A stretch of 64,000 nt of DNA. It comes from Limnomonas spitsbergensis (taxonomy: Eukaryota; Chlorophyta; Chlorophyceae; Chlamydomonadales). The position numbers were made by a program, and so were the translations under genes. Shown here piece after piece: positions 8,608 through 62,300 of the stretch. Location: the NCBI GenBank assembly GCA_037349105.1, contig JAYJMM010000035.1, positions 62,001-126,000 of the forward strand, in the 5' to 3' direction. Within the stretch, counting starts at the first letter, position 1, and every line of letters begins with the position of its first letter. The notes under the pieces were generated by a model that did not search any database, was not told the origin of the DNA, and was given only the letters and a program-made list of their open reading frames with translations.

Positions 8608-11600
8608 ATGGCCTGCAGCCAAGGGTCCGGTTCAGCAAGCCCTGTTTCTGGGTTTCCTGGCCGAAGGTGCTCTGTTGCGCACTGTTGAGTATATACAGTT
8701 GCTTGCCCCTCTTCGGCTGCAGGAAGCTGAGCAGCATCCCTCCCGACCTCTTTGACTACAAGGCCCTGGTGCCCCAGGCGGATCAGCTGCTGGCTGAGCT
8801 GCACCCCTCCGCAGACCCAATGCTCATCCAGGCACTTCGAGAAGGTGCGCTGGGAGCAAGGAGGCAGGAGGTGGGGGCTGCAGGCAAGAAGCAGCCTGGA
8901 AGAGGGCAGCAAAGAAGTGCTGGTGTAGACATGGATCTCATTGTAGCTGAACTGGTGGCATATGCATGGCATTCATTGGCGAGCCTGACCAGGCCAATTA
9001 GTATATCAGATATTATGTGTCCACGCATGGCTTTGGTTGCAACAGAAATGCCTGGCTCACACATGGTACTCGTTGCAGCCAAGACGACTTGCCCATGCAT
9101 GGCATGGTAGGTTGCAGCAGAAAAAACTGGCCCACGCATGGCATTTGTTACAACAGATGAGCAGACATGGCGCACTTGTGCCTGACGCTTCACCCATGCC
9201 TTGATCCCTGCTGAGGGTGAGATAGGAACCCCTCCTTAAGCACCTTCCCGCCCGCAGACAGATGGTGTTCACAGATTCAACCCTTGCGTTGGTGGTGCAG
9301 TCAGCTGGTGGCGGCAGATGTAGGCCAAGCCCTCTAGCCCAGTGCTCGGGTAGGGCCGGGTGCAAGCAGCTCAGTTATCATCCCAAAATGGGAATGGCAA
9401 TTTGTGCGATGCAGTTGCAGATCAGTTCAAAGTGCAGGGTTGCAAGATGTGAACCCTTTGGCTGGCAGCGTCTGGATCCGATCACGAATCCTTATCTCAG
9501 GCACCCCACACCCTCGGACAGTAATATTCCCCCAGCACTACCCGCTGAAATTATACCTACTGTAAATATAATATATCATTAAATGACCCCTCAGCTGTCC
9601 TTTATCTCTAGTGTTGCTGGAGCACCCAACAATGTTCACCCTCAGCGCTTCTCTTGAGTCTTGACCCCAATCCCGAACCTCTTCCCACTCTGACCCACCC
9701 ACCCTGGTCGGTCCATCCCTCTCCTGCTCCCAGGCTCCCTCGTCATCCTGCAGAAGAGCTCGCTTATCTCCCGTCTGGAAAGAGGTACACTCGAAGCGGG
9801 AGCAGCAACAGCCTCACGGGGAACACCAGGCAGTGCTGCAGATGCTGCTGATGCTGCAGTAGTGACTACGGCCTTGGGGTCCGTGTCGCCTGCAGCTGCT
9901 TCCCTCTGTAGCCTGTTGGACCCGGCCAGCCTGCAGCAGCTACCAGATGAGTTGTACCTAGTCGGCACGGCACATGTCAGCAAAAAGTCTGCTGAGCTGG
10001 CGTATCATGTAGTACGAGAGGTTGGCCCAGATGCAGTGGTTGTGGAGCTCTGCTGGTGAGGACGGGTCCAGTGCAGGGGTAGGGGGAAGGAGAGGTTGGG
10101 AGTGGAAAGGGGTGGAGGAAGTGAGGGCCAATGGAGGGGGGGAAGGGGAGAGTGTAGAGGGAAGTAGGGGGAGTGCAAGGCAAGCGGAAGCCGAAGTGCT
10201 GGGGTAAGGGAGGAATGGGGGTTATTGCATGGGGGGGGGTAGGGGCGCAAGTGCAGGGGGAAAGTAGGCATGGGGGCTAGTGCAGGGGGCAGGGAGGTAG
10301 GGAGACTTGTGTAGAGGGTGACTCAAGGACTTTCAGATGCCCATTCTTTTGTCTTCCATTGACCTCATCCTCGCTTGTGGCGTCAGGGACCGAGCCCCGC
10401 TGATGTTTTCGGAGCCAAGGCACCGGGACAGCCTTGACGGCTATCCAACATCCTCGCCAAGCGTCCCACAAGCCTTGCCGGAGGGCGCGGTTGTGATCAG
10501 CCCCGCCCCCGCCCCGTCCGCCGCTCCACGACCCCTGAGTTTTGGCGATTCTCTATCAAGAATTGCCACTGGTCTTAAGCAGGGAGGCGGGCTGCTGGAA
10601 ACGGTGCTGCAGGGCATGTACGCAACCATTGAGGGTGAGAGGATGAGCTTGGGGGAATGCATGGATACATTGGCGGCCTGCATGGGCATTACTTGAGAGC
10701 TAGGGTGCATGGAGGTATGCATGGGGATCGCATGGGGGCTGGCATAGAAGTGTGGAGGTCTTACTCCATGCAGGGAAAATATTGGTACATGGCTTTAAAT
10801 CACCATGGCTCTCCTCTCTCTCCTCATTGGCTGCCGAGGCTGATCTTTCAGCTGCAGCCTAAATTCCGAAGCCCAATGAATTGCTCCCGGCAGGCTCGCA
10901 TGAATACATGATAGCTCCTCCTACGCTCCTAGCAACCTTGGCCCGGGTTTGTTACCTCGTTATCAGCTTACGTGTTGCCTCCTCAAGCCAGTGTGTTGTT
11001 CCTTGCAGCCCAGCTGGGGACAACTGTTGGACTGGAATTCATAAGGACAAGACAGGCCATACAGGTGAGGGGAGGGTCATGCAGGTGAAGGGGGGACATG
11101 CAGGTGAAGGGAGGGCCATGCAGGTGAGGGGAGGGCCATGTAGGTGAAGGGGGGCCATGCAAGTGAGGGGAGGGCCATGCAGGTGAAGAGTGGCCATACA
11201 GGTGAGGGGAGGGCCATGCAGGTGAATGGGGGCCATGCAGGTGGGAGGAGGGCCATGCAGGTGAGGGGAGGGCCATGCAGGTGAGGGGAGGGCCATGCAG
11301 GTGAAGGGGGGCCATGCAGGTGAAGGGAGGGCCATGCAGGTGAGGGGAGGGCCATGCAGGTGAATGGGGGCATGCAGGTGAGGGAGGGCCATGCAAGTGA
11401 GGGGAGGGCCATGCAGGTGAAGGGGCGGGGCATGCAGGTAAAGGGGGACATGCAGGTGAGGGGAGGGCCATGCAGGTGAAGGTAGGCCATGCAGGTGAGG
11501 GGAGGGCCATGCAGGTGCAGGGGGGCATGCAGGTAAGGGGAGGGCCACGCAGGTGAGGGGAGGGCCATGCAGGTGAAGGGGGGCATGCAGGTGAAGGGGA

Positions 11601-14600
11601 GGGCCATGCAGGTGAGGGGAGGGCCATGCAGGTGAGGGGAGGGCCATGCAGGTGAGGGGAGGGCCATGCAGGTGAAGGGATGGCCATGCAGGTGGGGAGA
11701 GGGTTATGCAGGTGAGGGGATGGCATGCAGGTGAGGGGAGGGCCATGCCGGTGGAGGAGGCGCCATGCATGTGAGGGGAGGGTCATGCAGGTGATGGGAG
11801 GGCCATGCAGGTGAGGGGAGGGCCATGCAGGTAGAGGAGAGGGCTATGCAGGTGAATGGGGGCATGCAGGTGAGGGAGGGCCATGTAGTTGAGGGGAGGG
11901 TCATGCAGGTGAAGGGGGGGAGGGCCATGCAGGTGAAGGGAGGGCAATTCAGGTGAGGGGAGGGGCATGCAGGTGAAGGGGGGGCCATGCAGGTGAGGGG
12001 AGGGCCATGCAGGTGAGGGGAGGGTCATGCAGGTGAGGGGAGGGCCGTGCAGGTGAGGGGAGGGCCATGCAGGTGAGGGGAGGGCCATTTTTTAGGTGGA
12101 GGGAGGGTCATGCATGTGATGGGGGCTATATAGCTGAGATGTACCCGGCCATGAAGGCACACTGTTTGTTTCGTTTCCTCTCAGGACAATGTGCTGTCCA
12201 TTGCTGGCTACCTCCCGAGTCACAGCCAAGCAGTGCAGGAGCGCACCAAGGAGCTGCGGTTGAAGCACCCGGAGGGGTGGCTGGAGAAGCTGTGGAGGAG
12301 CGGCCGAGCGGAGTATGGACGATTTGTGTTGGGTGACCACTGCCAAAAGAGTGGGCCGCGGGGTGTTGAGGTGAGGGCCGGCCTGGACTGCACTGGACAC
12401 GAACGCAAAATGGGGAACTTAGGTTTCAAGCAAAGGCTGAGAACCACTGTAGCTGATTTAATTTGGGGATTTGAAATCCGTCTAGGGTGAAAAAATGTTC
12501 AATCTCCATTTGGAAGCAGGGCATGGAGTGGGCTCTGGATTCCATATTCGTTTTATTGGCTTTGGTCATGGAGCACAGTATGCTGCCCCACTCGGCCCCT
12601 CGTTTGCCTTTTTCTACTGTTTGTACCCCAGACCCTGTACGGTTGCATTTCACATGCCGGAATGATATGCAACATAACAATCCTTCACCTCAATTCTGAT
12701 ACTTTGCAACCCGAACCTGAACACGGAGCCCCAAAACTTGTGAAACCAGATGCGTTGTGTCTTGCCTCTTGCCTGCTGCCCACTGCTGCTTCAGTACACC
12801 ACCGTGCGCATGATTATGGAGCCCCCTTCCAACAAAGGACGCAAAGGCTCAGCACGCATCTACTACGGGGATGTGGGCGCCAAGGCCACGGTAGGGGGGG
12901 AGGGGGGGAGAAGGGTCAAGGCCACGGTAGGGAGGGGGAGAGGGGTCAAGGCCACGGTAGGGGGGGGGGGGAGGGGAGAGGGGTCAAGGCCACGGTAGGG
13001 GGGGGGGGGAGGGGAGAAGGGTCAAGGCCACGGTAGGGGGGGGGGAGGGGAGAGGGGTCAAGGCCACGGTAGGGAGGGGGAGAGGAGAAGGGTCAAGGCC
13101 ACGGTAGGGGGGGGGGAGGGGAGAGGGTCAAGGCCACGGTAGGGGGAGGAGGAGGGGATGTGGGCGCCAAGGCCACGGTAGGGGGGGGCAGGGGAGAAGG
13201 GTCAAGGCCACGGTAGGGGGAGGAGGAGGGGAGAGGGGTCAAGGCCACAGTAGGGGGGGGGAGGGGAGAGGGGTCAAGGCCACGGTAGGGGGGGAGGGGA
13301 GAGGGGTCAAGGCCACGGTAGGGGGGGGGGGAGGGGAGAGGGGTCAAGGCCACGGTAGGGAGGGGGAGGGGAGAAGGGTCAAGGCCACGGTGGGGGGGGG
13401 GGGAGGGGAGAGGGGTCAAGGCCACGGTAGGGAGGGGGAGGGGAGAAGGGTCAAGGTCACGGTAGGGGGAGGAGGAGGGGAGAGGGGTCAAGGCCACGGT
13501 AGGGAGGGGGAGGGGAGAAGGGTCAAGGCCACGGTAGGGGGGGGAGGAGGGGAGAGGGGTCAAGGCCACGGTAGGTGGGGGGAGGGGAGAGGGGTCAAGG
13601 CCACGGTAGGTGGGGGGAGGGGAGAGGGGTCAAGGCCACGGTATGGGGGGGGGGAGGGGAGAAGGGTCAAGGCCACGGGAGGGGGGGGGAGGGGGGAGGG
13701 GTCAAGGCCACGGTAGGGGGGGGGGAGGGGGGAGGGGTCAAGGCCACGGTAGGGGGGGGGAGGGGGGAGGGGTCAAGGCCACGGTAGGGGGGGGAGGGGA
13801 GAGGGGTCAAGGCCACGGTAGGGGGGGGGAGGGAGAGGGGTCAAGGCCACGGTAGGGGGGGGGAGGGGTCAAGGCCACGGTAGGGGGGGAGGGGGGAGAG
13901 GGGTCAAGGCCACGGTAGGGGGGAGGGGTCAAGGCCACAGTAGGGGGGGAGGGAGAGGGGTCAAGGCCACGGTAGGGGGAGGAGGGAGAGGGGTCAAGGC
14001 CACGGTAGGTGGGGGGAGGGGACAGGGGTCAAGGCCACGGTAGGGGGGGGGAGGGAGAGGGGTCAAGGCCACGGTAGGGGGGGAGAGGGAGAGGGGTCAA
14101 GGCCACGGTAGGGGGGGGGAGGGGAGAGGGGTCAAGGCCACGGTAGGGGGGGGGAGGGAGAGGGGTCAAGGCCACGGTAGGGGGGGGGAGGGAGAGGGGT
14201 CAAGGCCACGGTAGGGGGGGGGAGGGGAGAGGGGTCAAGGCCACGGTAGGGGGGGGGAGGGAGAGGGGTCAAGGCCACGGTAGGGGGGGGGAGGGAGAGG
14301 GGTCAAGGCCACGGTAGGGGGAGGAGGGGGAAGAGGGGTCAAAGCAACTGGAGGGGGGGAGGAGGGGAGAGGGGTCAAGGCCACGGTAGGGAAGGGGGAG
14401 GGGAGAGGGGTCAAGGCCACGGTAGGGGGAGGAGGGGGAAGAGGGGTCAAAGCAACCGGAGAGGGGGAGGAGGGGAGAGGGGTCAAGGCCACGGTAGGGA
14501 GGGGGGAGGGGAGAGGGGTCAAGGCCACGGTAGGGGGAGGAGGGGGAAGAGGGGTCAAAGCAACCGGAGGGGGGGAGGAGGGGAGAGGGGTCAAGGCCAC

Positions 14601-17028
14601 GGTAGAGAGGGGGAGGTGAAAGGGGTCAAGGCCACGGTAGGGGGGGGGGAGGGGAGAGGGGTCAAGGCCACGGTAGGGGGAGGAGGGGGAAGAGGGGTCA
14701 AAGCAACCGGAGGGGGGGGAGGAGGGAGAGGGGTCAAGGCCACGGTAGGGGGAGAAGAGGGGAGAGGGGTCAAGGCAACGGTAGGGGGGGAGGAGGGGAG
14801 AGTGTCAAAGCAACCGGAGGGGGGGAGGAGGGGAGAGGGGTCAAGGCCACGGTAGGGGGGGAGGGGGGAGAGGGGTCAAGGCCACAGTAGGGAGGGAGGA
14901 GGGGAGAGGGGTCAAGGCCACGGTAGGGGGGGAGGGGGGGAGAGGGGTCAAGGCCACGGTAGGGGGGGAGGAGGGGAGAGGGGTCAAGGCCACGGTAGGG
15001 GGGGAGGGGGGAGAGGGGTCAAGGCCACGGTAAGGAGGGAGGAGGGGAGAGGGTCAAGGCCACGGTAGGGGGGGAGGGGGGGAGAGGGGTCAAGGCCACG
15101 GTAGGGGGGAAGGAGAAGAGAGGGATCAAGGCCACGGTAGGGGGGGAGGGGGGTGAAGAAGGGAGAGGGTTCAAGGCTATGTGAGGTGGGAGGGGGATGA
15201 ACCTGTCCTTAGATGTGATATGATTTCAAGGCCCAGATTGGCTTCCGGCAAGATCCAGGCATACATGTACCTGAAAGACGTGTCGATGGCAAACGGAATG
15301 CCACTTTGTGCTGTCTTTCACATGGTGTACAGGGTGAAAGAGAAGATGACTATTTTTGCGGCCTCTCACACTATTGAATGCCTATTTTTGAACTTAAATT
15401 CAATACACTAGCTTGCAGCACGATCCCTCTGTGCACCATCTCCCAAGCCAAAGTTTATGTCTGACCCCTCAGCCCTACTGAGTGGCACTTGGCCCTTCTG
15501 TCTACCTTGTCGCAAAGTGCGCTCCTGTTGAGGCGTCCTGACCCGTTGACCCTCCGCCTTGTAGTGTTGATTATCGTGTATTTCCGCTATTATTCAGCGA
15601 CGTCACGACTTAAGGACAAGGGGGCCGGGTGCATCAAGCGCTGTTGCTGGGTTGCTTGTTGGCCATAGGCCTGTCAGGATTTGTTCCCCATCCACCCAAT
15701 GATGGCGGCCTAGACTTCCTCCGCCCTGTTGCCTCCCTCTCCCTCAGGTGCGCCGCTGCTGGGGTGTCCTGAGCCTCAGGGAAAAGGTGGGCTTCATCTG
15801 CAACCTCCTGTTTGGGAGCCTCTTCATCAAGCTGGATGAGGCGAAGCTCAACACCCTGCTACAGGTGAGCAGGGACAGGACAGGGACACCGTGAATGTGA
15901 AGGGCAGGTGTGGCCCGGGTGGGCGGGTCAAACTGGGAGGCTGACGGAGTCCCCATTGCAGGTTTCATGTCGTTTGCCAGGGACGCGGTGGGAGGGAAAG
16001 AGAGAGACATGGTCCTGGTGGGGTAGAAATGGAGTAGGGGCCGTGCTGGTGTCACCGTGGAAGGCGCTTCAGCGATAATTCAGGTACAGCATGGCCTATG
16101 GCTGGGGGGGGCTGGTAAAGGAAACCTGGCTGCTTGGGCCGTCAGCCATAGGCAGGTCAAGCTTGGGTCCCCCAAGGCCCAGTTGTGACTGCTCAGTGGC
16201 GATGGAAATTGGAAGCCCTACTTCGAAAAACACAGGGTAGTGCTGGAGCATCCGCGATGGAAGCCCTCTGATAACTCGCGCCCCAAACCCCTTTGAATGG
16301 CCTGCTGCTGTAGGAGGCAGGTAGCAGCCACATCGGGTTACCACGCCACCTGTTTGCCTCTCCCCTCTCACTTCTTTCAGTCTAGGATGTGGATCTGCTC
16401 ATCCTGGTGTGCTACCCTGGATCTCCTTCATACCCTGGATACCCTGGGTAACATGTCAAGGTGTGGTAGGGAAGGCCACCCCCCGCTGTCCCCCCCTCCC
16501 TTGCTCCCATCAGGAGGATATGTGGGAGCTCGTGAAGGAGATGGGGCATGAGTACCCGCAGCTCATGTGGCCGTTGTTGCATGAACGCAACATGCACCTC
16601 GCAGGTGAGGGACAAGAGCAAGGGCACGAGGAACGGGGCAGGCAGGTCTGGCATGAAGGGAAGATGCACGTCATACATCTTTATTTCGACTCATTGACTG
16701 CTGACCGTTTTGAAGTAGCTGCTGACTGATTATGTCACAAGCAAATGGTAGGCGAGGCAACAGCCCCGCCTGTGATTTTTGAAGGTGCTGAGCGTATGAG
16801 CCGCCAAGGAGTCTGTTTTCTGCCCGGCTGTAACATGCTCCTCGACCTCTTAAGTATTTATACTTCCTGCACCCACCTTCTCTGCCACCTTGACCGTCAG
16901 GTGCCATCGTTGCAGCGAAGCAGGGAGGCTTTCGCCGTGTGGTGGCCATCGTCGGGAAGGGGCATCTACCAGGCCTAGTTCACGCTCTCGTTACACCCCC
17001 GCACCCGGTCGCAGCTTTGGACCCTTAG
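8608..17028 (+). CDS. TraB-domain family protein (predicted 469 aa, ten exons)
   Basis: Predicted exons: 8608-8666, 8723-8844, 9734-10055, 10387-10634, 11009-11064, 12185-12370, 12795-12890, 15748-15864, 16514-16604, 16916-17028. Phase is kept at every junction and the total is 470 codons including TAG. The TraB core is clear: LVGTAHVSKKSAE then PDAVVVELC in exon 3, the YYGDVGAKAT/VRRCWGVLS segment across exons 7-8 (the family's GDR-x-TLxRxW region), HERNMHLA in exon 9 and VVAIVGKGHLPGL in exon 10. Eukaryotic TraB proteins sit on mitochondria or ER-mitochondrion contacts; their chemistry is unsettled. Two additions stand out: a Pro/Ala-rich stretch in exon 4, and exon 6 (62 codons), which falls inside the domain. 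Exon 1 and the exon 9-10 join are least certain. Introns 5 and 7 are filled by arrays of their own 5' splice junction. Confidence 0.8.
8930..9175 (+). repeat. Degenerate ~50-bp tandem repeat in TraB intron 2
   Basis: About five imperfect copies of a phrase like CACGCATGGCATTTGTTGCA, with a variable linker that often contains CAGA or CAGCA, occur inside the intron between TraB exons 2 and 3. It is too diverged for a copy boundary to be set exactly. Confidence 0.55.
11055..12105 (+). repeat. ~21-bp minisatellite made of the TraB exon-5 5' splice junction
   Basis: About 50 copies of a 19-22 base unit, GGCCATGCAGGTGAGGGGAG, start at the end of TraB exon 5. The true junction reads GGCCATACAG|GTGAGGGGAG, so each unit carries about ten bases of exon end plus the donor. 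Most copies keep CAG|GTGAGG or CAG|GTGAAG. The reverse-strand frames through the array are open because of unit composition and are not genes. Confidence 0.93.
12880..15180 (+). repeat. ~34-bp minisatellite made of the TraB exon-7 5' splice junction
   Basis: Roughly 60-70 copies of GTCAAGGCCACGGTAGGG plus a variable G/GGA run. The true junction is CCAAGGCCACG|GTAGGG at 12890/12891. One unit at about 13156-13181 keeps 24 exon bases (ending GTGGGCGCCAAGGCCACG), showing that the exon end was the template. A subfamily with CAAAGCAAC-[CT]GGAGG in place of CAAGGCCACGGTAGG appears from about 14340. The array fills most of the 2.86 kb intron. Confidence 0.93.
16085..16240 (+). repeat. Dispersed SINE-like repeat fragment in TraB intron 8
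   Basis: The segment contains CTGCTTGGGCC, a TCAGCCATAGGCAGG phrase and CAAGCTTGGGTCC, which match the family copy at 21590-21715 (GCTGCTTGGGCTAATGGCTG, CCAGCCAAGGTTTGGTCC). It is a degraded copy within an intron. Confidence 0.45.
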
Positions 17029-20826: not shown

Positions 20827-20904
20827 CCAGCAGTATTGACTGAAAGATGCTTCAGCTGCATCTCAGACTAGGGTGGAGGAGGCCCAGTGCTGAACCTGCT
20901 GCTT

Positions 20905-22980: not shown

Positions 22981-22993
22981 GCGTTCTGCTTAG

Positions 22994-23018
22994 TACCGTA
23001 AAACCACTTAGACTCCGC
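22994..23018 (+). repeat. Left terminal inverted repeat of the 2.2-kb element
   Basis: TACCGTAAAACCACTT followed by AGACTCCGC is the inverted partner of the sequence at about 25170-25194, with one mismatch. Confidence 0.85.
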
Positions 23019-23872: not shown

Positions 23873-23892
23873 CGTGCCATTTTGCCTCGAAC

Positions 23893-26527: not shown

Positions 26528-29500
26528 TCACACCGCAGCGTCAAGCCCTGGATCCCAAGGCTGCGGGCAGGTACACACTTTCAGGTGCCCCTTCAGGTCC
26601 GGGATGGTCCTGCAGGCTCTCTTGCACCCCACCCGGTGGCACCTCAGCTCCAGCTCCAACAAACGCTTCACCCCCGACCTGTCCACATGCCACCGGCCTG
26701 CTGCACCCCCCGCTTGCAGCGCTTGAACAACCAGGTGCAGCGGAACAAAGTAGGCCGTCGTGAAACTGTTCCAATGCTTCTTGTTTTTCAGGGAAGGCGA
26801 ATCGTAGTCCTGCAAGGGGCAGGGCGGGGCATCGGGTATCGGGTTTTGGCCGAGGGAGCACACGTCTAGACGGCGCGTCACGAGTCTTGAGAGGGGCCAC
26901 GGCAGGGTTACGGGCCACGGGTTTAGGGTTTAGGGTAAGGCACTTGTCGGGACAAAATTCAAACTCCTAGGAGGGTTCGGGTCTTGAGAAAAACATAAAA
27001 ACATTTCGTGACTGCGAGTCAAAGTCCTGCCATCGAGCAGGGCTTTGGGCAGTGAGGAGGGGGAGAGTGCACAGCTAGAAGCGGCCCCTCAGCTGGGTCC
27101 AAGACTGTGTTGGCAGGAGGTAACCCCAGGCATAAGGGTGCGGCTAATGGGGTGTTAAGGCATTTGGTGGCACAGAGATGCCGCATCTGTCCCTTCTTAT
27201 CAACGTCTGGATCAGCATCAGAACAGTATCGGTGCCATGCGATATAGAGAAACATTGATCCCACCTGATTTAATGCGTTCCCAGCCAGGGCACCTCCCCA
27301 TCTGAGCCCCCCCCTTCCCCCCCACACCTGGCTGATGACATGGAGGTGCAGCTGTGGCAGAGAAGGGATCTGATGGAAGCCTATCCGGAAGCACGGCGGG
27401 GCGGCGCCGGCGGTGGCGGTCCCCTCTGAGCTCAGACCCTGGATCCACTCCAAGGCCACCTGGAGCAGGTGCATGCAACATAGCATAGCGTTGAAAGAGG
27501 GCTGTAGCGCATGCTCTGTTTGTCCGGCCTACCTGAATCTTCAGTCTGATATAAAGTAGTTTAGCCTGGGGTGTGCATGTCTCGGCAGCCTCTATTTTTA
27601 ATTTCCTGTCCATGATGTTAGACATATCTGGGAGGGCCCTCCTCCTAGGGCTTCTCTGTCAGGATATCTCTCCACGCCTCAAAGCTGAGGACGCTCTCTA
27701 CATCAACAGCAACCGACCAGCATCCTGCCATGATTCTCAAGTCCCTGGCCAGGCCACCAGGGTTCATTCTAGGGTTCAAATGGCTTGCTTGTTCACACAT
27801 CACATCATCCACCCCTAGACATCCTGTCAGTCGGTGTGAATGATCGGGCTGTAAACACTCACATCTGCCCTCAGCAGCGCAGGTGATGGGTGCATGGCCC
27901 AGGAGCTGACCCTCTCCCCACCTTTTCCATGTGCTTCAGCAGCGGCAGGTGATGAGGCCGCAGGTCCTCCACGGACAGCAAGCCGAGGTCCCTGGCTACC
28001 ACCAGGCAATGGTGACGCGCCTTGGGGTACCTGCACCCGGGGGACGGCGGGGAGGGAGAGCAAGCAACTCGCAACAGGACACAGCTCGCAACAGGATGCA
28101 ACTCGCAACAGGACACAGCTTGCAGCATGACACAGCTTGCAACAGGACACTGCTCGCAACAGGACATAGCTCGCAACAGGACACAGCTCGCAACAGGACA
28201 CAACTTGCAACAGGATACAACTCGCAACAGGACACAACTTGCAACAGGACATAGATCGCAAGAGGCACAACTCGCAATAGGGCACAGCTTGCAACAGGAT
28301 ATAGCTCGCAACAGGATACAAATCAGCAATGTCTGTCATGTGTACCAGGGCGTATTGGCAGTACAATATTGTACTTCAAGTTTGGTTTCAGGTCCCTTGC
28401 ATGAGCCCCCCATAACTTACTTGTCCCCCATTACACGAGCCCCCCATGACTTACTTGTCCCCCATACGCAGGACCTGGTCATCCCACCAAGGCGCATCCA
28501 TCTGAGCCTGCCATTTTGCAGGGTCGTGTGCGTACTGCTGCAATGCACGCTGCCAGGCAGGCCCGGATGGCGCAGTGGTGGCTGCGGCTGGGCGTACTGC
28601 GGTAGACCCTGAGGGTGCAGAGGCCCTGACCCCGGGAGGTTGCGCCACAAACGGGCCATCCACTGGGCTTACAACCAGACGGTCGGGCGATCTCTCCATC
28701 CTAGGTCTCTTGGTGGCGTGGGAGGGGGCGTCCAGTCCTTGAGGGGAGAGAGGCTCTGCAGCCGACAAAGCCAAAGACCCTTCCTGGGGCTGCTGCTGCT
28801 GCTGGAGAGGGATCTCAGGGGTCGGCATTGGTTCCAGAGCCGCTTCAGCCAGCTTCTGCTGAGGTTGCTGCGGCTGCTGGACCTTGGGCTTGATGAGCCA
28901 CCTATCCATCAGGGTGCCGCTCTTTGGGAGAGGCACTCCAGGCCCCTTGCCCTTGCCAGCCTTCCCTATGTCTGCGGCTCCGGAGCCCTTCACAACTGGG
29001 GCATGCAGCCTGCCGGCGGACAGCTGCGGCTCTAAGCGGGCTAACCCCTCTCGCCAGCCCTCCTGCGGGAAGCGGCTCCAGGCCTGCAGGGCAGTCTCGG
29101 TTTCAGCCTCGGTGAGGCACACCAGCTGGCTACGGAGCCGCTCAGCGGCGCTGTCGGGCATGCCCCTTTGTATAAGCTCATTGGAGACCTGCCAGGGTTA
29201 AGGGATTAGGGTATATGGACCAGGGGGCATGTGATGGGTGCATGGACTGATGGGAGCATAGACCAGGGGTGTGTGATGGGTGCATGGACCAAGGGGTGCA
29301 TGGACTGATGGGTGCATGGACCAGGGGGGGCATGGACTGATGGATGATTATCTGCATGTCAGCTGCTTATTCCAGGCAGCAAGTAGGACATGACCGCAAG
29401 AGGGAATGACCTGGGGCCGCATGGGGGACGCGGTGGTTTCAGGCCTCTCAAGCTGTGTCTCCCAGCAGTCCTTCATGCAGTCATGTGACAGGGCAGGTGT

Positions 29501-51678: not shown

Positions 51679-54600
51679 CTAAACCTTGGCTGTGATCACA
51701 CCGCTCTCCACCATATAGGGCACCTCCGCCGCCAGCCAGGGAGCAAGACCGAGGCAGAGCGCATGGGCGATGCCGAAGTGGGGGCTGATCGGGGAGGAAG
51801 GGAGGGAGGGGAGGAGAGTGGGCTGATCGGGGAGGATGGGAGGGGCGGGGAGGGAGCTGATTAAGGAGGGAGGGGAATGAGTGGAGAAGAATGGAGGGGG
51901 CTGATCGGGAGGGTGGGAGGGGTGGGAGGGAGCTGATTGGGGAGGGAGGGGAATGAGTGGGGAAGGAGGGCAGGGGGAGCTGGAAGGAGGCTGATTGTGT
52001 GGGGAAGGAGGCCCAGGAGGGAGCTAAGCGGGGAGAGAGGAGCAGGGATGGATGGAGGGGGCTTTGTGCTATAGAGAGTGGGAGGGAGGGGGCTGAGCGC
52101 TGAGGGTGGGAGGGACTAAGAGGAAGGGAGAGGCGGTGAGGGTGCTGAAGGGGGACGCAAGGAAGGAGGGCGGCGAGGACGGGGAGGGGTGGGCACTGGG
52201 CAGGGGGCTGAGCGGGGAAAGAGGCACATAATTGAAGTGTAATTGGGGGTAACGGTCATGTTGATTTTCTGAATTTTTGATCACACAAATGTAAAGAAAT
52301 CTAAAAGTACGGAGCAAGTACCCGGATCCTTTACGAGATGGAAATAATCCAGGACATGAAAGCCGTTATATTGGTGTATCTTTGATAGACCAGTGCGCGT
52401 TTATCCCCACAAAATCCTGGGGCATCAGCTAGGGGCATCATGCAAAACGGAATGGCCCACCATTCCACTGCAAGGGAGAACCGAGGAGAGGAGGGGGAAA
52501 TCTGGGGTTAAACCCTTCATCCAAAGACCTAAACCCCATCTAGGGCAGGGACAGTCCACACTATCCTGACTTACTTTTCAAAATAAGGCACAGGGCTGTG
52601 AGCCTGGTTGATGGCCCGCCACATGCTAGTGGAGGAAAATGTTCATATGCACACCAGCCTACCTAGCCCCGCTACTGCCCCGCTACAGCCCAAGTGCCAA
52701 TATTTCATTGAAGTCCATAGAAACTACCAGTAACATTCGAAAATCAAGGAAAAACAAAGAAAACACGACTGGAAAGAACTCATACGAGCTGCCTATCACC
52801 CCCCACACCGCCCACTCACGTATTTTTGGCCCACAGAGGTTTGAAGTGCACGGTGAGGCAGATCTGCATGAATACAGGTGTCAACACGTCATGCGGGTCC
52901 CAGGGGCGTACCAAAGGTTTTAAGCGCACACCGTCAAGCAAATCAGGTGGGCCCCAGGCAGGGGCATGTCAGGTATGATGCCGATGGCCAGTCGGCGGGT
53001 CAGACAGACTCACGTGGGTCATGTCAGGTGGGTCAGGCCGGTCAGGTGGTTCATGTCAGGCGGGTCAGACAGACTCAGGTGGGTCATGTCAGGTGGGTCA
53101 GGCCGGTCAGTGGGTCATGTCAGGCGGGTCAGGCGGGTCAGGTGGTAACTTGTCGAGCAGTAGCTGTGGTGGCACGTCAGGCAGTGGCGGAGGTGGCAGC
53201 ATGTGAGGCGGTGGCAGTGGTGGGTGAGGCGGGTTTCAGGCAGTGCCAGGGGGGAAGCTCTGAGGAGGGCGTGCATGAGGCCGACTGCCAGTATTATGCT
53301 CAAGGCGCACCAGGCCAGTCCACCAGGTGGCACATCAGGTGGGTCCCAGGCAGGGCAAGGCAGGACAAGGCAAGGCAAGGTGCAGCACCCACATCCACTG
53401 GCAAGGCCATCAGACGGGTCCCAGGCAGGGCAGTGCCCCTGATCCCCCGGTCAAAATGCGTTTCTTCACCCTCACTTCCCTACCACAGTATATCCTAGCC
53501 ATGTTCACCTTAAGCTATATCTTAACATGCTTACCCTCAGTGTGTCTACCCCTCCCCCAACCAGTCCATCATGCCCATGCTCCCCCCTCTCCCCCCTCAC
53601 CTTCCCCCCTCGGTACATCTTTGCCGTCTTGCCCTCGAGCTCCGGCAGCTCTATCTCCGGCGCGGTGGCGGGGTACGTTGCTGGGATCTCAAACTGGAAA
53701 TCGAACTCGTACTTTATCAGGTTATGGACATACCTTGTGGGGTGGGTGGGGTCATGATCAGCGCACTGCAGTACAATGGAGCTGAATCCAGTCGAGCTGA
53801 ATTGAGCTGAACTTGATTGAGATAAATTGAGCTGAATCTGATTGAGCTGAATCCAATTGAGCTGAATTGAGCTGAATCTGATTGAGATCAATTGAGCTGA
53901 ATCTGATTGAGCTGAATCCAATTGAGCTGAATTGAGCTGAATCTGATTGAGATAAATTGAGCTGAATCTAATTGAGATAAATTGAGCTGAATCTAATAGA
54001 GCCGAATCCAATTGAGGGGAATTGAGCTGAATCTAACTGAGATGAATTGAGCTGAATCTGATTGAGCTGAAACCAATTGAATCGGGTCAAGGACCCACAT
54101 GACAAGGTGAGAGGCGCTGTTAGTATAATTTATTTTCCAGCGCAGGTTGGCTACAATTCAGCCCAAGTCAGGTTATTTACCAGCACTTCCCCTTCCTAGG
54201 CCTTACCAGCACTTCCCCTTCTTAGGCCTTACCAGCACTTCCCCTTCCTAGGCCTTACCAGCACTTCCCCCTTCCTAGGCCTTACCAGCACTTCCCCCTT
54301 CCTAGGCCTTACCAGCACTTCCCCTTCCTAGGCCTTACCAGCACTTCCCCCTTCCTAGGCCTTACCAGCACTTCCCCCCTCCTAGGCCTTACCAGCACTT
54401 CCCCCTTCCTAGGCCTTACCAGCACTTCCCCTTCCTAGGCCTTACCAGCACTTCCCCTTCCTAGGCCTTACCAGCACTTCCCCCTTCCTAGGCCTTACCA
54501 GCACTTCCCCTTCCTAGGCCTTACCAGCACTTCCCCCCTCCTAAGCCTTACCAGCACTTCCCGCTCCAGTTCTGGCCGTTATTCTGAGGCGGTGACACCG

Positions 54601-55939
54601 TGAACCAGTCTGAGTCCGAGGCCTTGTTCAGTTGGATGTACTGAATCAGCGCATGCAGCTCCTGGGAAAAGGGGATAGATAAGAAGGTGGGGCTTCAAGA
54701 CTCCCTCATGACAACGAGACAATGGTGCTATTTTTTCATATTAGCTTCACTTTTTTGAACCACCAGTGGCTACTTCTCCTATGTTTGGAAAAGTCCTGAA
54801 GTCTTACCGAGCAGTGCTAGCCCCCCCCTCCTTTAGGGGAAGCTGCAATTCTTCTATAATAAATTACAGTTGCTCGACAGAACAGTCGATGTACAGAATC
54901 AGCGCATGCAGCTTCTGGAAAAGGAGTGCTGCAAGGTAGGTGGCCAGCACACATTGTTTTACATCAGATAACTCTGCATACTGCTCTTCAGATCCTAAAC
55001 ACCAACTGGAAAGAGCTGCTGGGGTATCAATGTAGGGGCTCAGGCACAGGCCTAGGCCGGAGGCGCTAGCAGGTGTCGAAAAGCACTAGGAGGCAGGCAG
55101 GGGCAAAGAGCGCCCTAAAAGCCACGAGGTTGGTGGATCACAGCTGGCTGTGAATGGCATGTAAGCATGGCATGGCACATAAAGAATTTAAAGCTTGTGC
55201 ATGGCATCGCACATGGACATGTAAGCTTGTGCATGGCATGCTACATGGGCAAGTGTAAGCTTGTGCATGGCATGCTACATGGGCAAGTGTAAGCTTGTGC
55301 ATGGCATGGGGCACAGGCAAGGAAAAGCTTGTGGGCATGGCACATGTACAAGTAAGAGCTAGTGCATGGCATGACCTTGAACAAGGAAAAGCTAGAGCAC
55401 AGCATGGCACATGGACATGTAAGCTTGTGCAGGGCACGGCGTCTGGACAAGTAAAAGCTTGTGCATGGTATGGCACTTAGCCGTAAACATTAAGCAGGGT
55501 GTGACGCATGGACGTGTAGGCTTGTGCGTGGCACTGCTCATGGGTGTGTAAGCTTGTGCGGTGCATGGCGCATGGACGTGTAGGCTTGTGCAGCACTGCT
55601 CATGGGTGTGTAAGCTTGTGCAGTGCATGGCGCATGGACGTGTAGGCTTGTGCAGCACTGCTCATGGGTGTGTAAGCTTGTGCGGTGCATGGCGCATGGA
55701 CAAGTGGAATTTGTGAATAGTATGGCGCATGGACGAATAAGCATGTGCAGAAATGATACATGTACAAATAAAAGCTTGAGCATGGCATGGCGCATGAAGA
55801 TTCCCTGGGGATCAGCTTTCAAGGTTACCTGTTTGAGCCTGCCCTCCCATCCCTCTTTGTCGCGGGGCCCAGCGTTGATGGTCAGGAGCGGTATCTGCTG
55901 CACCGCAGCCTTGGTGCTGGAGCCAAAGGACTCGGACAT
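51679..55939 (-). CDS. UFC1: UFC1, UFM1-conjugating (E2) enzyme, 167 aa
   Basis: Takes UFM1 from the E1 UBA5 as a thioester and passes it, with UFL1, to targets such as ER-bound ribosomes. Minus-strand exons: 55939-55829, 54661-54552, 53733-53601, 52863-52820, 51784-51679; phase is kept and the total is 504 bases. The 167 aa equal the length of human UFC1. Landmarks: [16 protein letters not shown] near the N-terminus; SDWFTV and [15 protein letters not shown] across the exon 2/3 join; [20 protein letters not shown] and MYRGGK; then [14 protein letters not shown] with the catalytic Cys at residue 120; and [18 protein letters not shown] at the C-terminus, very close to land plants. Exon 4 has only 44 bases yet holds the active site. 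Every intron contains a tandem array. Convergent with NOL, divergent from the lyase-like gene. Confidence 0.95.
51780..52220 (-). repeat. Irregular array carrying copies of the UFC1 exon-5 3' splice site
   Basis: The real acceptor reads CCCCGATCAG|CCCCCAC on the transcribed strand (exon start 51784). Going into the intron, CCCGATCAGCCC-like sequence recurs at about 51833-51843 and 51900-51910, with weaker forms (CAATCAGCTCCC, CGCTCAGCCCCC) near 51855, 51940, 51990, 52095 and 52210. The linkers are C/T-rich. Unit spacing is uneven, roughly 40-70 bases. Confidence 0.75.
52890..53430 (-). repeat. Tandem and scattered repeats in UFC1 intron 3
   Basis: From about 52980 to 53160 a 19-30 base motif, GGTCAGGCGGGTCAGGTGG or GTGGGTCATGTCAG, is repeated. 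A second phrase, GGTCCCAGGCAGGGC (or GGGCCCCAGGCAGGGGC), occurs near 52945, 53340 and 53417, with CAGGTGGG or CAGACGGG before it. Neither resembles the flanking splice junctions. Confidence 0.75.
53770..54095 (-). repeat. AT-richer tandem repeat in UFC1 intron 2
   Basis: About 12 copies of GATTGAGATAAATTGAGCTG or GAATCCAATTGAGCTGAAT phrases, unit roughly 18 or 36 bases. It lies between exon 3 and the splice-junction array of the same intron. Confidence 0.85.
54170..54565 (-). repeat. 26-bp array made of the UFC1 exon-2 5' splice junction
   Basis: Fourteen copies plus the real junction. Transcribed-strand unit: GGGAAGTGCTGGTAAGGCCT followed by AGGAAG. The real junction is GGGAAGTGCTG|GTAAGG at 54552/54551, so each unit holds 11 exon bases and an intact donor. 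Copies differ mainly in a C-run length (26 or 27 bases). Confidence 0.95.
54880..54930 (-). repeat. Copy of the UFC1 exon-2 3' splice site and exon start in intron 1
   Basis: Transcribed strand: CTTTTCCAG|AAGCTGCATG then CGCTGATTCTGTACATCGAC. The true exon 2 begins CTTTTCCCAG|GAGCTGCATG then CGCTGATTCAGTACATCCAA. About 36 of 40 bases match. The copy lies 254 bases upstream and has no matching exon 3' end, so it is a decoy acceptor. Confidence 0.9.
55140..55795 (-). repeat. Degenerate ~35-47-bp array in UFC1 intron 1
   Basis: About 15 copies centred on GTAAGCTTGTGCATGGCATG with CACATGGAC or CTCATGGGTGT linkers. A higher-order unit (about 64 bases, with GCATGGCGCATGGACGTGTA) repeats exactly at about 55560-55700. 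Confidence 0.88.
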
Positions 55940-56305: not shown

Positions 56306-59300
56306 ATGTTGCTTGTGAGGAGACACGTCCCCTTCGCGATCACACAAATCATAAGGCAAATGGCTTCAGCGGCGGCGAAGCCCTTCACCGTCGGCGGTAT
56401 CGGCGCACAGCCGTCCCTGGACGACGTCGTGAGCATCGCGCTATCGCAGGTGCGTGTTAGATCTGCCATGCAGCCGACACGCCATGAGACACGCACCCCC
56501 CCTCCGAATTCAAAACTTGCATGTTCGCCCCACGCAAGTAAGTGTATCTCCTTACAGCAGTTCGAATCGTCTACCCCGCGCAGGTGACCGTGCAGTTGGA
56601 CCCTGCGGGAGCAGACCGCGTGAAAAAACTGTCCCCATCACCCAAGCTGTTCCAGGCTGAGGAGGTGAGCACTATGGGTGTTTTTTAAACCTATGCGGTA
56701 CCACTGGGGCGCACCTAATGTGGAAATCAGGCCACTGGCACTGCACAGAACCTTTTCACCCACAAACACAACACCCCATGCATGACCATGCGAGGCCGAC
56801 ATCATACCGCCATGCCCCCCGCATGCTGTCCGATGGTGCGGCGTTCTTACCAGTGATAACAAGGGTCGAGCGGAAGCGGAAAAGTACATCCTTCATAGGT
56901 TATTAGGATTGTTGTACGTACAAGACATAGGGCCCATCGCACCTTTCCATTTAGACTATTTAGCACAGGCTGCTAATTCAATGAGGACGGAAATGAACAA
57001 TTGCTAATGCAGAGGGTTCAGAAGTCGGGTATTCCCCAGTTCCCAAAGCACCGAAAACTCCGCGATCGTGTTATCTAAACAAGGCCATGCAGCATGTATC
57101 TCTTATCCCTTAACCTCCGCCCTGATCCGAGGCCATTAGAGCCGGCAGATGAAGCGGCGGGTTGTGATAGACCTTGGTTCTGCTCGTTTGCTGATAGGTC
57201 TGTACCCTGGCATGATTCAGCAGAGCCAATCAGATCCGGCAAGTCCAATCAGAGTCAGCAGATGCGGCCGTTGGATCCAGTACTTAGAAGAGGGATGTGC
57301 ATGGATCTCTGTCGTTGCTGATATCTCTGAAGTCTGAAATATGATCTGAGGTAGCAGATGTGGCTGGGGCAACAGATGAGACAGAGAGAAGAGCAGGGCC
57401 CTGGATCTGGTTGCTGTGCTGCGTGCCTGCGTCCATGCCCTATGGGTAGCCACGTCTCTGAGCCGGATCTGAGTAGTTGAGTCTCTTAAAGGATGGAGTG
57501 TCCATAAGGCCATATCCCCCCTCCCTGCCTGCTGCAAGGATGTGTAGATGAGTGGAAACAATCCAGGTTGTGGAAGTTGAGAAAGGCAAGAAGAATTACA
57601 TCGGGATCGGCACGGAAAAACAAATTTCTCCATGTCACAGAAGAAAGGTCTTAGGTGTAAGGGTGAAAGGCTGAGCATCAAGCAGTGAGACTTCCAATAA
57701 CCCCACCTCAACAGCTTGCCGCAAGCCACCGTGTTCCCATGCTTACTTCAGTGCGCACCCAACCCCCTTTTAAGGCTGCCCGGTTGCCAACTTTGAGCCA
57801 ATGCTTGACCTGGGCAGGCCTCTGGCTGATGGCCCTAGCCACTGAGTGCTCGTCTCAGCGTTCTAATGTTTGCTCCTTTCTCCTTTCGGGCTGGAATCAG
57901 ATTATTCCTAGATTTGCAGAAGAACAGAATCTCCCCCCCGCTGGCCTCCCCCTGCTTTCCTGACTCCACCCCCTCTCGCCTCTTACCAATGGCCGGCCCC
58001 TGCCAGCAGCAGCGCTTTTCTTTTCAGTCTCTCCCCTCCAGTCTCTGCACTCCCCGACCCCTCTCCCACCCGGACATCCATTGCAGGCCCAGCTAGGGAT
58101 GTTCATCAGCCGCAGTAATGGTGGTGACCAGCCGCAGGCAGCATGTGATGTGCAGCCCCTGACTCCCCCCCCTCTCTCCCCCCTTTTGCCCATGCTAGAC
58201 CCCGGCCAGTGGTGTGGAGCAGGCTCAGGTTGGCACCGCCCTGAGCGTGCCACAGGTCCGCGCTATCATGGCAACCAAGCTGCTCACACTGATGAACGGA
58301 CGCAGCGGTGTGCGACTACAGGTCAGCGATGTAGCTGAAGTGTGGCTGAAGGGTAGCTGAAGCGTGTAAAACTAAGCAGTGCTGCAGGCACGTCCCCAAT
58401 GCCAAGCATTATGATCAATACCCGTAATACCTGTTTAGCGTTGTACACTGTAGAGGGCTGGTCTCTGTGCGACTTGCTGCCACCCCGCCGTCCCTTCCCC
58501 CCCTCCAGGTGTGCGACTACCTTGTGGCACTGCTCAACGCGGGCGCAGTGCCTGCGGTCTCGACCGGCTCCGGAGGCGAACCTGAGGCTGCTCTCCTCAG
58601 GCATCTGGCGGATGCGTGCCATGGTGCAGGTGTCAGCTGTGGCGCCATTGTGCCGCCGGGACTCAGTGCGACAGAGCGGGCGGCGGTGGAGAGCGGGGCA
58701 GCAGGTAGCGCAGGAGTGTCGGCCTTGACGGTCCCGGTGAGATGTAGGGCTCAGGGTGTAGGGTCAAGATAATAGGGCTCAGGAAATATGGCACAAGGTG
58801 TAGGGTGATGATTGATGGTCCTGCGGAGGTCTAGGTTGAGGGTTTAGGTTGGAGGTCGTGCCGGTTGTTGGTGAAGTGTTGGTTGGAGGTGTGGGGTGTA
58901 GGGTGTCAGCAACACATTGAACTACTGGAGTGTTACAGTGATTGGGTGATTCAATTAATTTGGTTTAAAAATGAATTAAAAAGCTTGGTGATTAAATTTT
59001 GGTACAAAGATGTGGCATTTATTTAGAGGTGATTACGAGTGAGGTTTATTAAAAGTTTCCTTTTACATCATTGATTTTACCGTTCTGATTGTCCATGAGG
59101 CAGCTCCTCATGAGCAATAAGACTGACACATGTTTTGCGCTACTCCCTGCGCACTGTGGTCGCCTCAGTGGATGTGTCATCCATGCTTTTTGTAATCCTT
59201 GGAATCCATATCCTGAGGGCTGACTTGTGATTGTCGTGGTTGTGCAGGCTGCCAAGCGGCTGCTATCGCTCGCCAGTGCCGTCGCCGCACTCTCCGTCGA

Positions 59301-62300
59301 GGCCATCGGAGCCCAGGTGTGGGCTGAGGGTCGAGGGTTCAGGAGCATCAGGGACCTGTTGTAGGCCAAGGTTTGATTTGTATGCGGGTTAAGGATCTTG
59401 TTTTTGGGGACCTCAAAGCCCAGGTCAAGGTCAAAGGGTCAAGGGGCACTGGTACACAGGTGCAGCTTACGTGCTAAGGGCTCAGGTGTCAAGCCTGCCT
59501 CTGCTTCTACAGATCCGGCTACATGAAACATATTACATGAGGTGCTCAGCTGCAAGAGCGCGTTTCTCCACCTCCTCCCCCTGCTCCTCCTACTCCCTCG
59601 CTTGTCCCCCCCCCCCTCTCCACTTCCTCCTCCTGCTCCTCCTACTCCCTTGCTATTCCCCGCCTCCCCCACTCCCGCCTGTTTCTCTCCCCCCCTTGCT
59701 GCCAGTGATAGTTTAGTGATGTTCGTTTTTCATTGTTGGGCACCGGTACTGAAATATTCGAAAGGAGCACTGCAGGCGCGGAAAAAATCTATTCTCAGCT
59801 GTTTTCGCTTGTTTTCGGGATATTTTCTTTACTGCCTGACTGTGTTGTACCTCGAGACCGATAATTGTCCGATACTGTGTTTCGGTACAAGTCGTACCCG
59901 GTACCGACTATAAAGCCACTGTTTTCTGCCCACCCACCCCGCCTCCCCCCGATTTCCCCCACAGATCAAGGTGTATGATGCGGATTACATCGAAGCGCTC
60001 GGCTACAAGAGCGCGGTGGGTGTGGCGGATGAGCTCCGCACTCTGCTGGAGGGCTCTAAGCGCACATCCACACTCAAGGGCGGGGAAGAGCTGCCCCACT
60101 TCAGCCTGGCACCACAGGTGAGGGCGGATGTGCTTCCTAAAGATGAAACCTTAACCCTGAACCCTGACTGTAGATTTGCTTTGCCTTCCCTCATAAATAA
60201 CCTTCTTTGGGGTTGAGGGATCCATGAATATATGAAGTATCGATTGACATCGCAATACTTCAGTCATAAAATAATGCAGGTTTTGGTCGAAAGGGCCTGA
60301 GGGCAGCATTACATGAAATTAGTTTCCTATACCCTTGCTCTAACCTACACTGACATTCCTCTTACAGTTCTGACACACTTGTGTTGCCTTGTCTCACCCT
60401 GTCCCACACTTGTCTCACTCTTCCCTCACACTTGTACCTCACAGAGGCTTGGCGCTGCTGCCGAGGCGGTGGCGGCGGCATATCAGGCGGTACGGTCTGA
60501 GGTACAATCTGAGGCGCAGGCTGCCAAGGCCGGGTGCCCGCTGCCTCCTTCCCCGGTGATGGCGCCGGCATTGCTGGAGATGGGCCGGGCGCTGCTGGTG
60601 GTCGGACAGGGATGTGTGGCGCGGGCTCAGAGGGTGGCGCAAGGGCAAGCGCTCGGCATGGTGCGTTTGGGGGGGGGGAAGGGGGCGCATGGGCAAGCGC
60701 TCGGCATGGTGCGTTTGTGGGGGGGGCGTATGGGCAGGCGCTCGGCATGGTGCGTTTGGGGGGGGGGGCGCAAGGGCAAGCGCTCAGCATGGTGCGTTTG
60801 GGGGAGGGGCGCAAAGGCAAGCGCTCGGCATGGTGCGTTTGGGGGAGGGCGCAAGGGCAAGCGCTCGGAATGGTGCGTTTGGGGGAGGGGCGCAAGGGCA
60901 AGCGCTCGGCATGGTGCGTTTGAGGGGGGGGCGCATGGGCAAGCGCTCGGCATGGTACGTTTGGGGGAGGTCGCATGGGGAAGGGCTCGGCATGGTGCGT
61001 TTGGGTGGGGGGGCGCATGGGCAAGCGCTCGGCATGGTGCGTTTGGGGGGGGGGGCGCAAGGGCAAGCGCTCGGCATGGTGCGTTTGGGGGGGGGGGGGG
61101 GGCGAAAGGGCAAGCGCTCGGCATGGTGCGTTTGGGAGGGGGGCGAAAGGGCAAGCGCTCGGCATGGTGCGTTTGGGGGGGGGGGCGCAAGGGCAAGCGC
61201 TCAGCATGGTGCGTTTGTGGGTGGGGGGCGCATGGGGAAGGGCTCGGCATGGTGCGTTTGGGGGGGGGCGCATGGGCAAGCGCTCGGCATGGTGCATTTG
61301 GGGGGTGGCGCAAGGGCAAGCGCTCGGCATGGTGCGTTTGTGGGGGGGGGGCGCATGGGCAAGCGCTCGGCATGGTGCGTTTGGGGGAGGGCGCAAGGGC
61401 AAGCGCTCGGAATGGTGCGTTTGTTAGGGGGCGCATGGGGAAGGGCTCGGCATGGTGCGTTTGGGGAAGGGCGAATGGGGAAGGGCTCGGCATGGTGCGT
61501 TTGTGCGGGGGGCGCATGGGGAAGGGCCCGGCATGGTGCATTTGGGGGGGGGGGCGCATGGGGAAGCGCTTAGCATGGTGCGTTTGTGGGGGGGGGGCAT
61601 GGGAAAGCGCTCGGCATGGTGCGTTTGTGGGGGGGGCGCAAGGGCAAGCGCTCGGCATGGTGCGTTTGGGGGGGGGGGCGCAAGGGCAAGCGCTCTGCAT
61701 GGTGCGTTTGGGTCGGGGGGCAAGCAAGCGCTCGGCATGGTGCGTTTGGGGGGAGGAAGGGGGCGCAAGGGCAAGCGCTCGGCATGGTGCGTTTTGGGGG
61801 GAGGGAGGGGCAAGCAAGCGCTCGGCATGGTGTGTTTTGGGGGGGAGAGGGGCAAGCGCTCGGCATGGTGCGCTTGGGGGGAGGGAGGGGCAAGCGCTCG
61901 GCACGGTGCGTTTGGGGGGGGGGGGGGGGGCAAGCGAGTGCTCAGCATGGTGCTTTTGGGGGGGAGGGGTGGGGCAAGCGCTGGGCATCGTGCGTTTGGG
62001 GGGAGGGGTGGGGCAAGCGAGCGCTCGGGATGGTGCGCTTGGGGGGAGGGAGGGGCAAACGCTCGGCACGGTGCGTTTGGGGGGAGGGGAGGGGCAAGCG
62101 CTCGGCATGGTGCGTTTGGTGGGGGGAGCGGCAACTCCATGCAGGGGATGGGAGACTGGAGAGGGAGCTGCTGAGGGAGGAAAAAGGGAAAAGAGAGGAA
62201 GACGGTTTAGAAGACAAAATAACAAGTGGTATACAAATCTGCCTGAGGAGGAAATAACACAGGACAAAAGTAAGCTCTGAGATGATCACCTTCTGTACCA

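What the first reader, a model, noticed from the sequence alone, without database searches (positions are those of the whole stretch)
11055..62125. Synthesis: splice-junction-templated tandem duplication as a genome-wide habit
Seven independent cases in three of the four intron-rich genes: donors in TraB introns 5 and 7, UFC1 intron 2, the lyase-like gene and aprataxin; acceptors in aprataxin and UFC1 introns 1 and 4 (counted by gene end). Units differ in sequence and length but share the rule of exon edge plus splice site. Tandem duplication at AGGT is a known proposed route to intron gain; here it seems to expand existing introns. Possible drivers are slippage or R-loop breakage at G-rich donors, or selection for redundant splice sites. 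NOL, with ten exons, shows none, so it is not universal.
Basis: partly seen in the sequence, partly recalled or inferred. Interest (0 to 1): 0.9.

Follow-up and report, generated by a model that had tools for sequence, protein, structure and literature searches.

The report
Algal introns echo their exon edges
In this green alga about one sampled intron in three contains decayed, same-direction copies of the edge of its own neighbouring exon, best explained by frequent local tandem duplication that now and then runs over an exon boundary, and this offers natural material for asking how a cell tells a true splice site from near-copies of it.

Summary
The observation largely holds and is wider than reported; the proposed cause is not supported. 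In the window five donor cases are real (TraB "5" and "7", UFC1 2, lyase, aprataxin) and two acceptor cases (UFC1 1; UFC1 4 weakly). The aprataxin acceptor array lacks AG and exon. I sampled 132 introns of this 260-Mb chlamydomonadalean genome: 28 in the window, 104 outside, nearly all in chaperonin and HisRS genes. Exon-only 40-nt edges matched their own intron above 200 pieces of other genes' introns in 20 (donor) and 28 (acceptor) of 132; either in 42 (window 5 of 28, outside 37 of 104). Reversed-intron control: 3 and 1. Exon interior: 3 and 5 of 118. Copies are head-to-tail, usually about 120 nt away, 68-94% identical. Junctions are repeated about as often as random intron positions (27 and 24 against 22.5 of 122). 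Outside the window there is a mild excess, absent for junction windows at the strictest identity but not for wholly exonic acceptor windows (7 against 3.5 of 95). Donor G content and reading frame show no effect. Best reading: fast generic local tandem duplication, tolerated across exon edges because the outermost sites serve.

The parts
11055..12124 (+). TraB-family gene, donor array (20-nt unit, about 52 copies) made of exon end GGCCATACAG plus gtgagggg; intron 11065-12184
   Evidence: in the exon-only test 3 of 200 null pieces score as high
12881..15153 (+). TraB-family gene, donor array (about 36-nt unit, about 65 copies) made of exon end CAAGGCCACG plus gtaggg; intron 12891-15747
54177..54562 (-). 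UFC1 intron 2 donor array (26-27-nt unit, about 15 copies) with exon end GGAAGTGCTG plus gtaagg; intron 53734-54551
   Evidence: exon-only test 2 of 200
60632..62126 (+). Aromatic-lyase-like gene donor array (about 40-nt unit, about 35 copies) with exon end CAAGCGCTCGGCATG plus gtgcgtttg; intron taken as 60661-62374
   Evidence: acceptor 62374 chosen by reading frame only
28407..28466 (-). Aprataxin-like gene: exon end ATGGGGGACAA plus gtaagt present twice, 34 nt apart; intron 28031-28454
   Evidence: junction inside the DcpS_C match; exon-only test not significant (23 of 200)
54874..54933 (-). Copy of the UFC1 intron 1 acceptor and the first ~40 nt of exon 2, about 250 nt upstream of the real one; intron 54662-55828
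51816..51977 (-). UFC1 intron 4: repeats with CCCCGATCAG|CCCCC next to the acceptor; only five exonic C
   Evidence: exon-only test not significant (22 of 200)
35090..35860 (-). Pyrimidine-rich 11-nt array abutting an aprataxin-like acceptor; unit lacks AG and exon sequence, so not a junction copy
58307..58520 (+). Lyase-like intron 58322-58508: the same 13 nt (GGTGTGCGACTAC) lie at the end of the upstream exon and at the start of the downstream exon
   Evidence: by reading; significance not tested

Best explanation
Introns of this alga undergo frequent local tandem duplication: units of about 20-150 nt, copied head to tail and then left to decay. The process is largely blind to splice sites. 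When a unit happens to span an exon edge, the event is tolerated because the intact exon and its splice site stay at the outer edge and the copy lies inside the intron, where it is removed. The intron lengthens and carries fossil copies of the exon edge with pseudo-splice sites. Inside exons the same events are purged. The window's high-copy G-rich arrays are the extreme cases. Shown: the copies, their orientation, spacing, decay, depth into the exon, and rates at junction, intron interior and exon interior. Inferred: the molecular step (slippage or unequal exchange) and use of the outermost sites in RNA.
For: Exon-only 40-nt edges recur in their own intron in 20 (donor) and 28 (acceptor) of 132; reversed-intron control 3 and 1 of 132; exon interior 3 and 5 of 118. 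Windows along 122 introns: junction and interior alike, falling to 5 of 112 for exon bases 41-80 and 0 of 103 for 61-100 on the acceptor side, and to 3 of 110 and 0 of 101 at the same depths on the donor side. Junction 27 and 24 against 22.5 at random intron positions; at the strictest identity 5 and 3 against 7.8 (all 122 introns). Regular spacings such as 105/209/317 and 121/240/360/480; median nearest copy 121 nt (17 donor sides) and 116 nt (27 acceptor sides). Splice dinucleotides in copies look neutral: GT kept 42 of 49 (0.74 expected), AG 24 of 39 (0.70 expected); nearest distances are multiples of 3 in 4 of 17 and 12 of 27. Spliced coding sequence has 15 of 2199 repeat windows, introns 1525 of 6494, of which outside the window 777 of 4687. 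Exon models of four genes align to solved proteins: UFC1, CCT6, a cpn60 and HisRS; 12 of their 22 introns carry edge copies.
Against: At looser identity junctions exceed random positions: either edge 45 against 33.0 of 122; in non-window introns 38 against 24.3 of 95, 0 of 2000 draws as high. Non-window donors still show 9 against 5.2 (p 0.04) at the next-to-strictest cut, and wholly exonic acceptor windows number 7 of 95 at the strictest cut, where a random intron position gives 3.5. The circular-shift test agrees (non-window donor 22 against 15.8, p 0.02; acceptor 21 against 15.9, p 0.06). I attribute this to the exon being frozen by selection; that is not proven and the counts are small. 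Unannotated flanks also hold big arrays (1063 of 3522 windows, 960 of them in four stretches), while window intergenic sequence is poor (104 of 2255), so whether the process is generic or intron-biased is open. In paired paralogous introns 6 of 36 sides are hit in both copies, against about 2 if independent; shared ancestry or local propensity could cause it. At one counted HisRS junction (L028 3206) the human protein is 9 residues longer. No RNA data.
Confidence: 0.66

Rival explanations
1. Junction-preferred origin: splice sites, or breaks linked to splicing or transcription there (R-loops, G-rich donors), template or attract the duplications.
For: Non-window introns: donor 22 and acceptor 22 of 95 against 16.0, p 0.03 each; 14 and 15 against 9.3 at a stricter cut; wholly exonic acceptor windows 7 against 3.5 at the strictest. 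Five donor cases lie in one 64-kb window.
Against: Over all 122 introns no significant excess at either end taken singly (p 0.11 and 0.38), and none for junction windows at the strictest cut, 3 and 3 against 3.5 of 95 and 5 and 3 against 7.8 of 122. Donor-hit introns are no richer in G than others, 0.365 against 0.354. Exon copies remain detectable longer than intron copies.
Confidence: 0.21
2. Selected function: redundant or decoy splice sites, or pseudo-exons, regulate splicing.
For: Copies often keep GT (42 of 49). Use of a second UFC1 donor would put a stop codon straight after Trp (TGG TAA), so unproductive splicing is conceivable (by reading).
Against: AG kept in only 24 of 39, no more than neighbouring bases predict; distances show no clear reading-frame preference; interior intron sequence is repeated about as often.
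Confidence: 0.06
3. The introns were born by tandem duplication of exon segments holding AGGT (Rogers model).
For: The L012 intron at 8109 is largely copies of the downstream exon start, the first beginning soon after the donor.
Against: Intron start resembles next exon start above the 99% null in 2 of 132 (L012 8109 and L020 7612); intron end resembles previous exon end in 1 of 132. Edge hits are mostly one-sided: 36 of 42 hit introns have only one edge hit.
Confidence: 0.04
4. Artefact: gene-finder errors, low complexity or assembly error.
Against: Null pieces come from introns of the same genome and the reversed-intron control gives 3 and 1 of 132. Four genes were checked against solved proteins. 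Copies are decayed and differ, unlike assembly duplication.
Confidence: 0.03

Closest known systems
Tandem repeats near intron-exon junctions in Chlamydomonas and Volvox (PMC3887541; abstract and passages seen)
   Same: Same group of algae; tandem repeats densest in introns and more frequent toward intron ends
   Different: In the passages I saw it counts repeats and motifs by position; they do not describe units that contain exon edge plus splice site, nor decayed copies of the flanking exon
[quoted passage not shown] potato RdRp, PMC4974935; abstract and introduction read)
   Same: Tandem duplication across an intron-exon boundary; splice signals come from the duplicated piece
   Different: There a new intron arises; here the copies lie inside an existing intron and the signature of gain is rare among the introns tested
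Fission-yeast genes with multiple 24-bp AGGT repeats crossed by an intron (Zhu and Niu 2013, as reported in the introduction of PMC4974935; original not seen)
   Same: An array of short units with splice motifs around one intron
   Different: Units there are exonic and two genes are named; here about a third of sampled introns, with exon-edge units next to conserved exons
Introner-like elements (named in the introduction of PMC4974935; features otherwise recalled)
   Same: Repeats that lie in introns and carry splice sites
   Different: Introners are a family dispersed over many genes; here each intron repeats its own exon edge

Membership tests
Intronic minisatellite / local tandem repeat | Head-to-tail copies with regular spacing | tested here: met
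   TRF arrays in window; spacings such as 105/209/317 and 121/240/360/480; reversed control low
Intronic minisatellite / local tandem repeat | Copy number variable within the species | not testable with these tools
   No second allele seen: one TraB exon matched only itself in the assembly; no population data
[quoted passage not shown]
   2 of 132 and 1 of 132 above the 99% null
[quoted passage not shown]
   No relative's genomic DNA held for this genome (stated in the answer)
Introner-like element | Same sequence in introns of many genes | tested here: not met
   Exon edges match their own intron above pieces of other genes' introns in the hit introns; one exact 20-mer of the TraB unit was found 30 times, each within this window's array
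   27 and 24 against 22.5 of 122; mild excess in 95 non-window introns (22 and 22 against 16.0), none for junction windows at the strictest cut, but 7 against 3.5 for wholly exonic acceptor windows

The most novel reading that the evidence does not exclude
In this alga, and perhaps in its order, introns grow chiefly by duplication in place, so often across exon edges that about a third of introns carry fossil copies of the neighbouring exon with near-identical splice sites, and the exon edge is a mildly preferred substrate. Correct splicing must then rely on something beyond the local site, such as position next to the true exon.
Probability: 0.27. Interest if true: 0.8.

Novelty: new variant of a known kind. 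Interest (0 to 1): 0.62.

Why it matters
Where intron length comes from is an old question, and tandem repeats toward intron ends in volvocalean algae have been reported, without this anatomy in the passages I saw (PMC3887541). Here the source can be read: part of the added sequence is the exon itself, with a clock (decay of a copy against a conserved exon). It also supplies many natural competitions between a true splice site and nearby copies, some identical over 20 bases or more, which makes the rule of splice-site choice testable. Seven paper searches listed nothing whose title or abstract start describes exon-edge copies as a common content of introns; most subscription journals are not in that library.

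Tried and rejected
Junction hotspot: not adopted as main cause after the profiles and the position tests, but not excluded. The 'either edge' figure is not used, because circular shift puts the two ends side by side; one search uses two independent random positions. G-rich donors as driver: no difference. Intron gain: rejected for nearly all introns tested. Selection on the copies' splice dinucleotides: none seen. A second haplotype of the window: one TraB exon finds only itself. Other loci come in pairs about 82-88% identical in shared blocks, used as paralog pairs: 18 intron pairs, 36 sides, 6 hit in both, 6 in one only, 24 in neither; in 3 of the 6 one-sided cases the intron with the copy is the longer. 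These pairs also mean that the 132 introns are not all independent.

First boundaries placed from protein matches were sometimes wrong (L012 8127 became 8109). The gene finder recovered 13 of 20 such introns exactly in five loci. It also predicts exon-edge copies as small pseudo-exons; introns next to such weak exons (score under 12) and introns under 150 nt were dropped before the count of 132. Of the predicted genes only those in 17 named locus-strands (chaperonin and HisRS loci, with some neighbouring predicted gene parts such as in L018) with mean exon score of 18 or more were used; predictions in L026, L027 and L029-L033, on the other strands, and one weak L013 model were left out. So the outside sample is biased to two gene families. 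The intron-against-intergenic comparison gave no clear answer. Passages of PMC8226300 and PMC2830987 were also seen; those shown do not mention exon-edge copies.
Full report
WHAT THE WINDOW SHOWS. The window is part of contig 35 of a 260-Mb assembly of 124 contigs. By CCT5 protein its best named matches include Sanguina, Astrephomene, Chlamydomonas and Haematococcus at 79-81% identity, with unnamed or transcript matches up to 85%, so it is taken to be a chlamydomonadalean green alga. The five donor cases are as described, and the units contain the last 9-15 exon bases plus the donor. UFC1 and TraB boundaries at the arrays are fixed by protein alignment without a gap there. Of the acceptor cases, UFC1 intron 1 is clear, UFC1 intron 4 is weak, and the aprataxin one fails because the unit has no exon sequence.

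GENOME TEST. Guided by the chaperonin matches I took 18 loci of 10 kb, two of them near the window, plus L009 beside the window and five arbitrary loci. A first pass with 45 introns placed by protein matches showed many strong copies in genes unrelated to the window. For example, one CCT4 intron of about 600 nt consists largely of repeated copies of the downstream exon's first 50 bases, and a CCT6 intron holds six copies of its upstream exon's end, mostly at about 120-nt spacing.

With a small gene finder the set grew to 132 introns of at least 150 nt: 28 in the window and 104 outside. Using exon bases only, so that the splice consensus cannot help, 20 donor and 28 acceptor edges of 132 matched their own intron above all 200 same-length pieces of other genes' introns; about 0.7 each would be expected by chance. 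The reverse complement gave 3 and 1, exon interiors 3 and 5 of 118. At least one edge was hit in 42 of 132 introns, 5 of 28 in the window and 37 of 104 outside, in 13 of 17 locus-strands; 6 introns had both edges hit. The test misses short exon parts: TraB '5', UFC1 2 and aprataxin do not pass it (3, 2 and 23 of 200 null pieces as good). In four genes aligned to solved proteins 12 of 22 introns are hit: UFC1 1 of 4, CCT6 4 of 7, HisRS 3 of 6, cpn60 4 of 5. Those alignments have few gaps; one falls at the last CCT6 junction (1 residue) and one at a HisRS junction (9 residues).

ANATOMY. Copies are in the same orientation, the nearest typically 116-121 nt away, reach a median 32 (17 donor sides) or 42 (27 acceptor sides) bases into the exon, and are 68-94% identical. 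In 122 introns the rate of repeated 40-nt windows is about 15-21% inside the intron and 20-22% astride the junction. It then falls: on the acceptor side 20 of 122 for exon bases 1-40, 15 of 121 for 21-60, 5 of 112 for 41-80 and 0 of 103 for 61-100. On the donor side it is 11 of 122, 5 of 119, 3 of 110 and 0 of 101. Coding sequence itself has almost none: 15 of 2199 windows.

IS THE JUNCTION SPECIAL? Over all introns, junction windows (27 donor, 24 acceptor of 122) are close to random intron positions (22.5; p 0.11 and 0.38), although either edge is hit in 45 against 33.0 for two random positions. Outside the window there is a mild excess, 22 and 22 of 95 against 16.0, either edge 38 against 24.3; at the next cuts 14 and 15 against 9.3, then 9 and 6 against 5.2. 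At the strictest cut junction windows show none (3 and 3 against 3.5; all introns 5 and 3 against 7.8), but wholly exonic acceptor windows number 7. Because the exon half of a junction copy is held constant by selection, old junction copies stay recognisable longer than intron-intron copies; I think this explains the excess but have not proved it, and a modest preference remains possible. Hit donors are not richer in G.

ARE THE COPIES USED OR SELECTED? GT is kept in 42 of 49 and AG in 24 of 39 aligned copies, near what neighbouring bases predict, and distances fall in all three frames (12, 8, 7 for acceptors; 4, 5, 8 for donors). This fits neutral debris. That the cell splices at the outer sites is inferred from protein continuity, not from RNA.

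EXPANSION OR BIRTH? The mark of intron birth by tandem duplication is above the 99% null in 2 and 1 of 132, and hit introns are longer (median 650 against 452 nt, p 0.01). In 18 intron pairs of paralogous genes, 6 of 36 sides are hit in both members, 6 in one only and 24 in neither; some copies match the partner's exon better than their own, which suggests that they are old, and others match their own better, so they are recent or homogenised.

LIMITS. There is no RNA and no sister genome. Whether the process is intron-biased is unsettled: window intergenic sequence has 104 of 2255 repeat windows, introns 1525 of 6494 (748 of 1807 in the window, 777 of 4687 outside), but some unannotated flanks are dense satellites (1063 of 3522).

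PRIOR WORK. A survey of 31 species reports that in C. reinhardtii and V. carteri tandem repeats are densest in introns and commoner toward intron ends (PMC3887541, abstract and passages). Tandem duplication across an intron-exon boundary is known as a route of intron gain in single cases (PMC4974935, abstract and introduction). In seven searches I saw no listing that describes flanking-exon copies as a common content of introns.

Noticed in passing
1-4200: A long pol-like reading frame that looks like protease, reverse transcriptase, integrase and a chromodomain-like end: a Ty3/gypsy-type retroelement, by reading only.
   Followed up: no
31441-34628: A 16-nt satellite, about 200 copies (GGCCTTTGGTCTGGAT), within the span of the aprataxin-like gene.
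   Followed up: no
58307-58520: The same 13 nt occur at the end of one lyase exon and at the start of the next, a target-site-like direct repeat around a 187-nt intron.
   Followed up: no
L028 4539-4685 and 5859-6113; L011 8457-8645; L018 7262-7484; L012 9849-10000; L026 3060-3208: A dispersed element of about 140-250 bp, roughly 76-95% identical between loci, partly inside predicted introns.
   Followed up: no
17690, 25400, 25840, 42390, 45110 (approximate): Several scattered stretches resembling GGCTCGGCCGC...CAGAGGTGTAACGTCATTGACC in both orientations, perhaps a short interspersed element; by eye only.
   Followed up: no
L009 1900-10000: Next to the window a HisRS-like gene runs into repeat-rich sequence; in L009 383 of 494 sampled windows are local repeats, apparently a giant repeat-filled intron.
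   Followed up: partly
L016/L017, L020/L021, L022/L023, L024/L025: Chaperonin genes come in pairs on different contigs about 82-88% identical in shared blocks, suggesting an old genome duplication or hybrid origin.
   Followed up: partly
L026: A CCT1-like chaperonin stretch with stop codons in one of its two family matches, perhaps a pseudogene.
   Followed up: no
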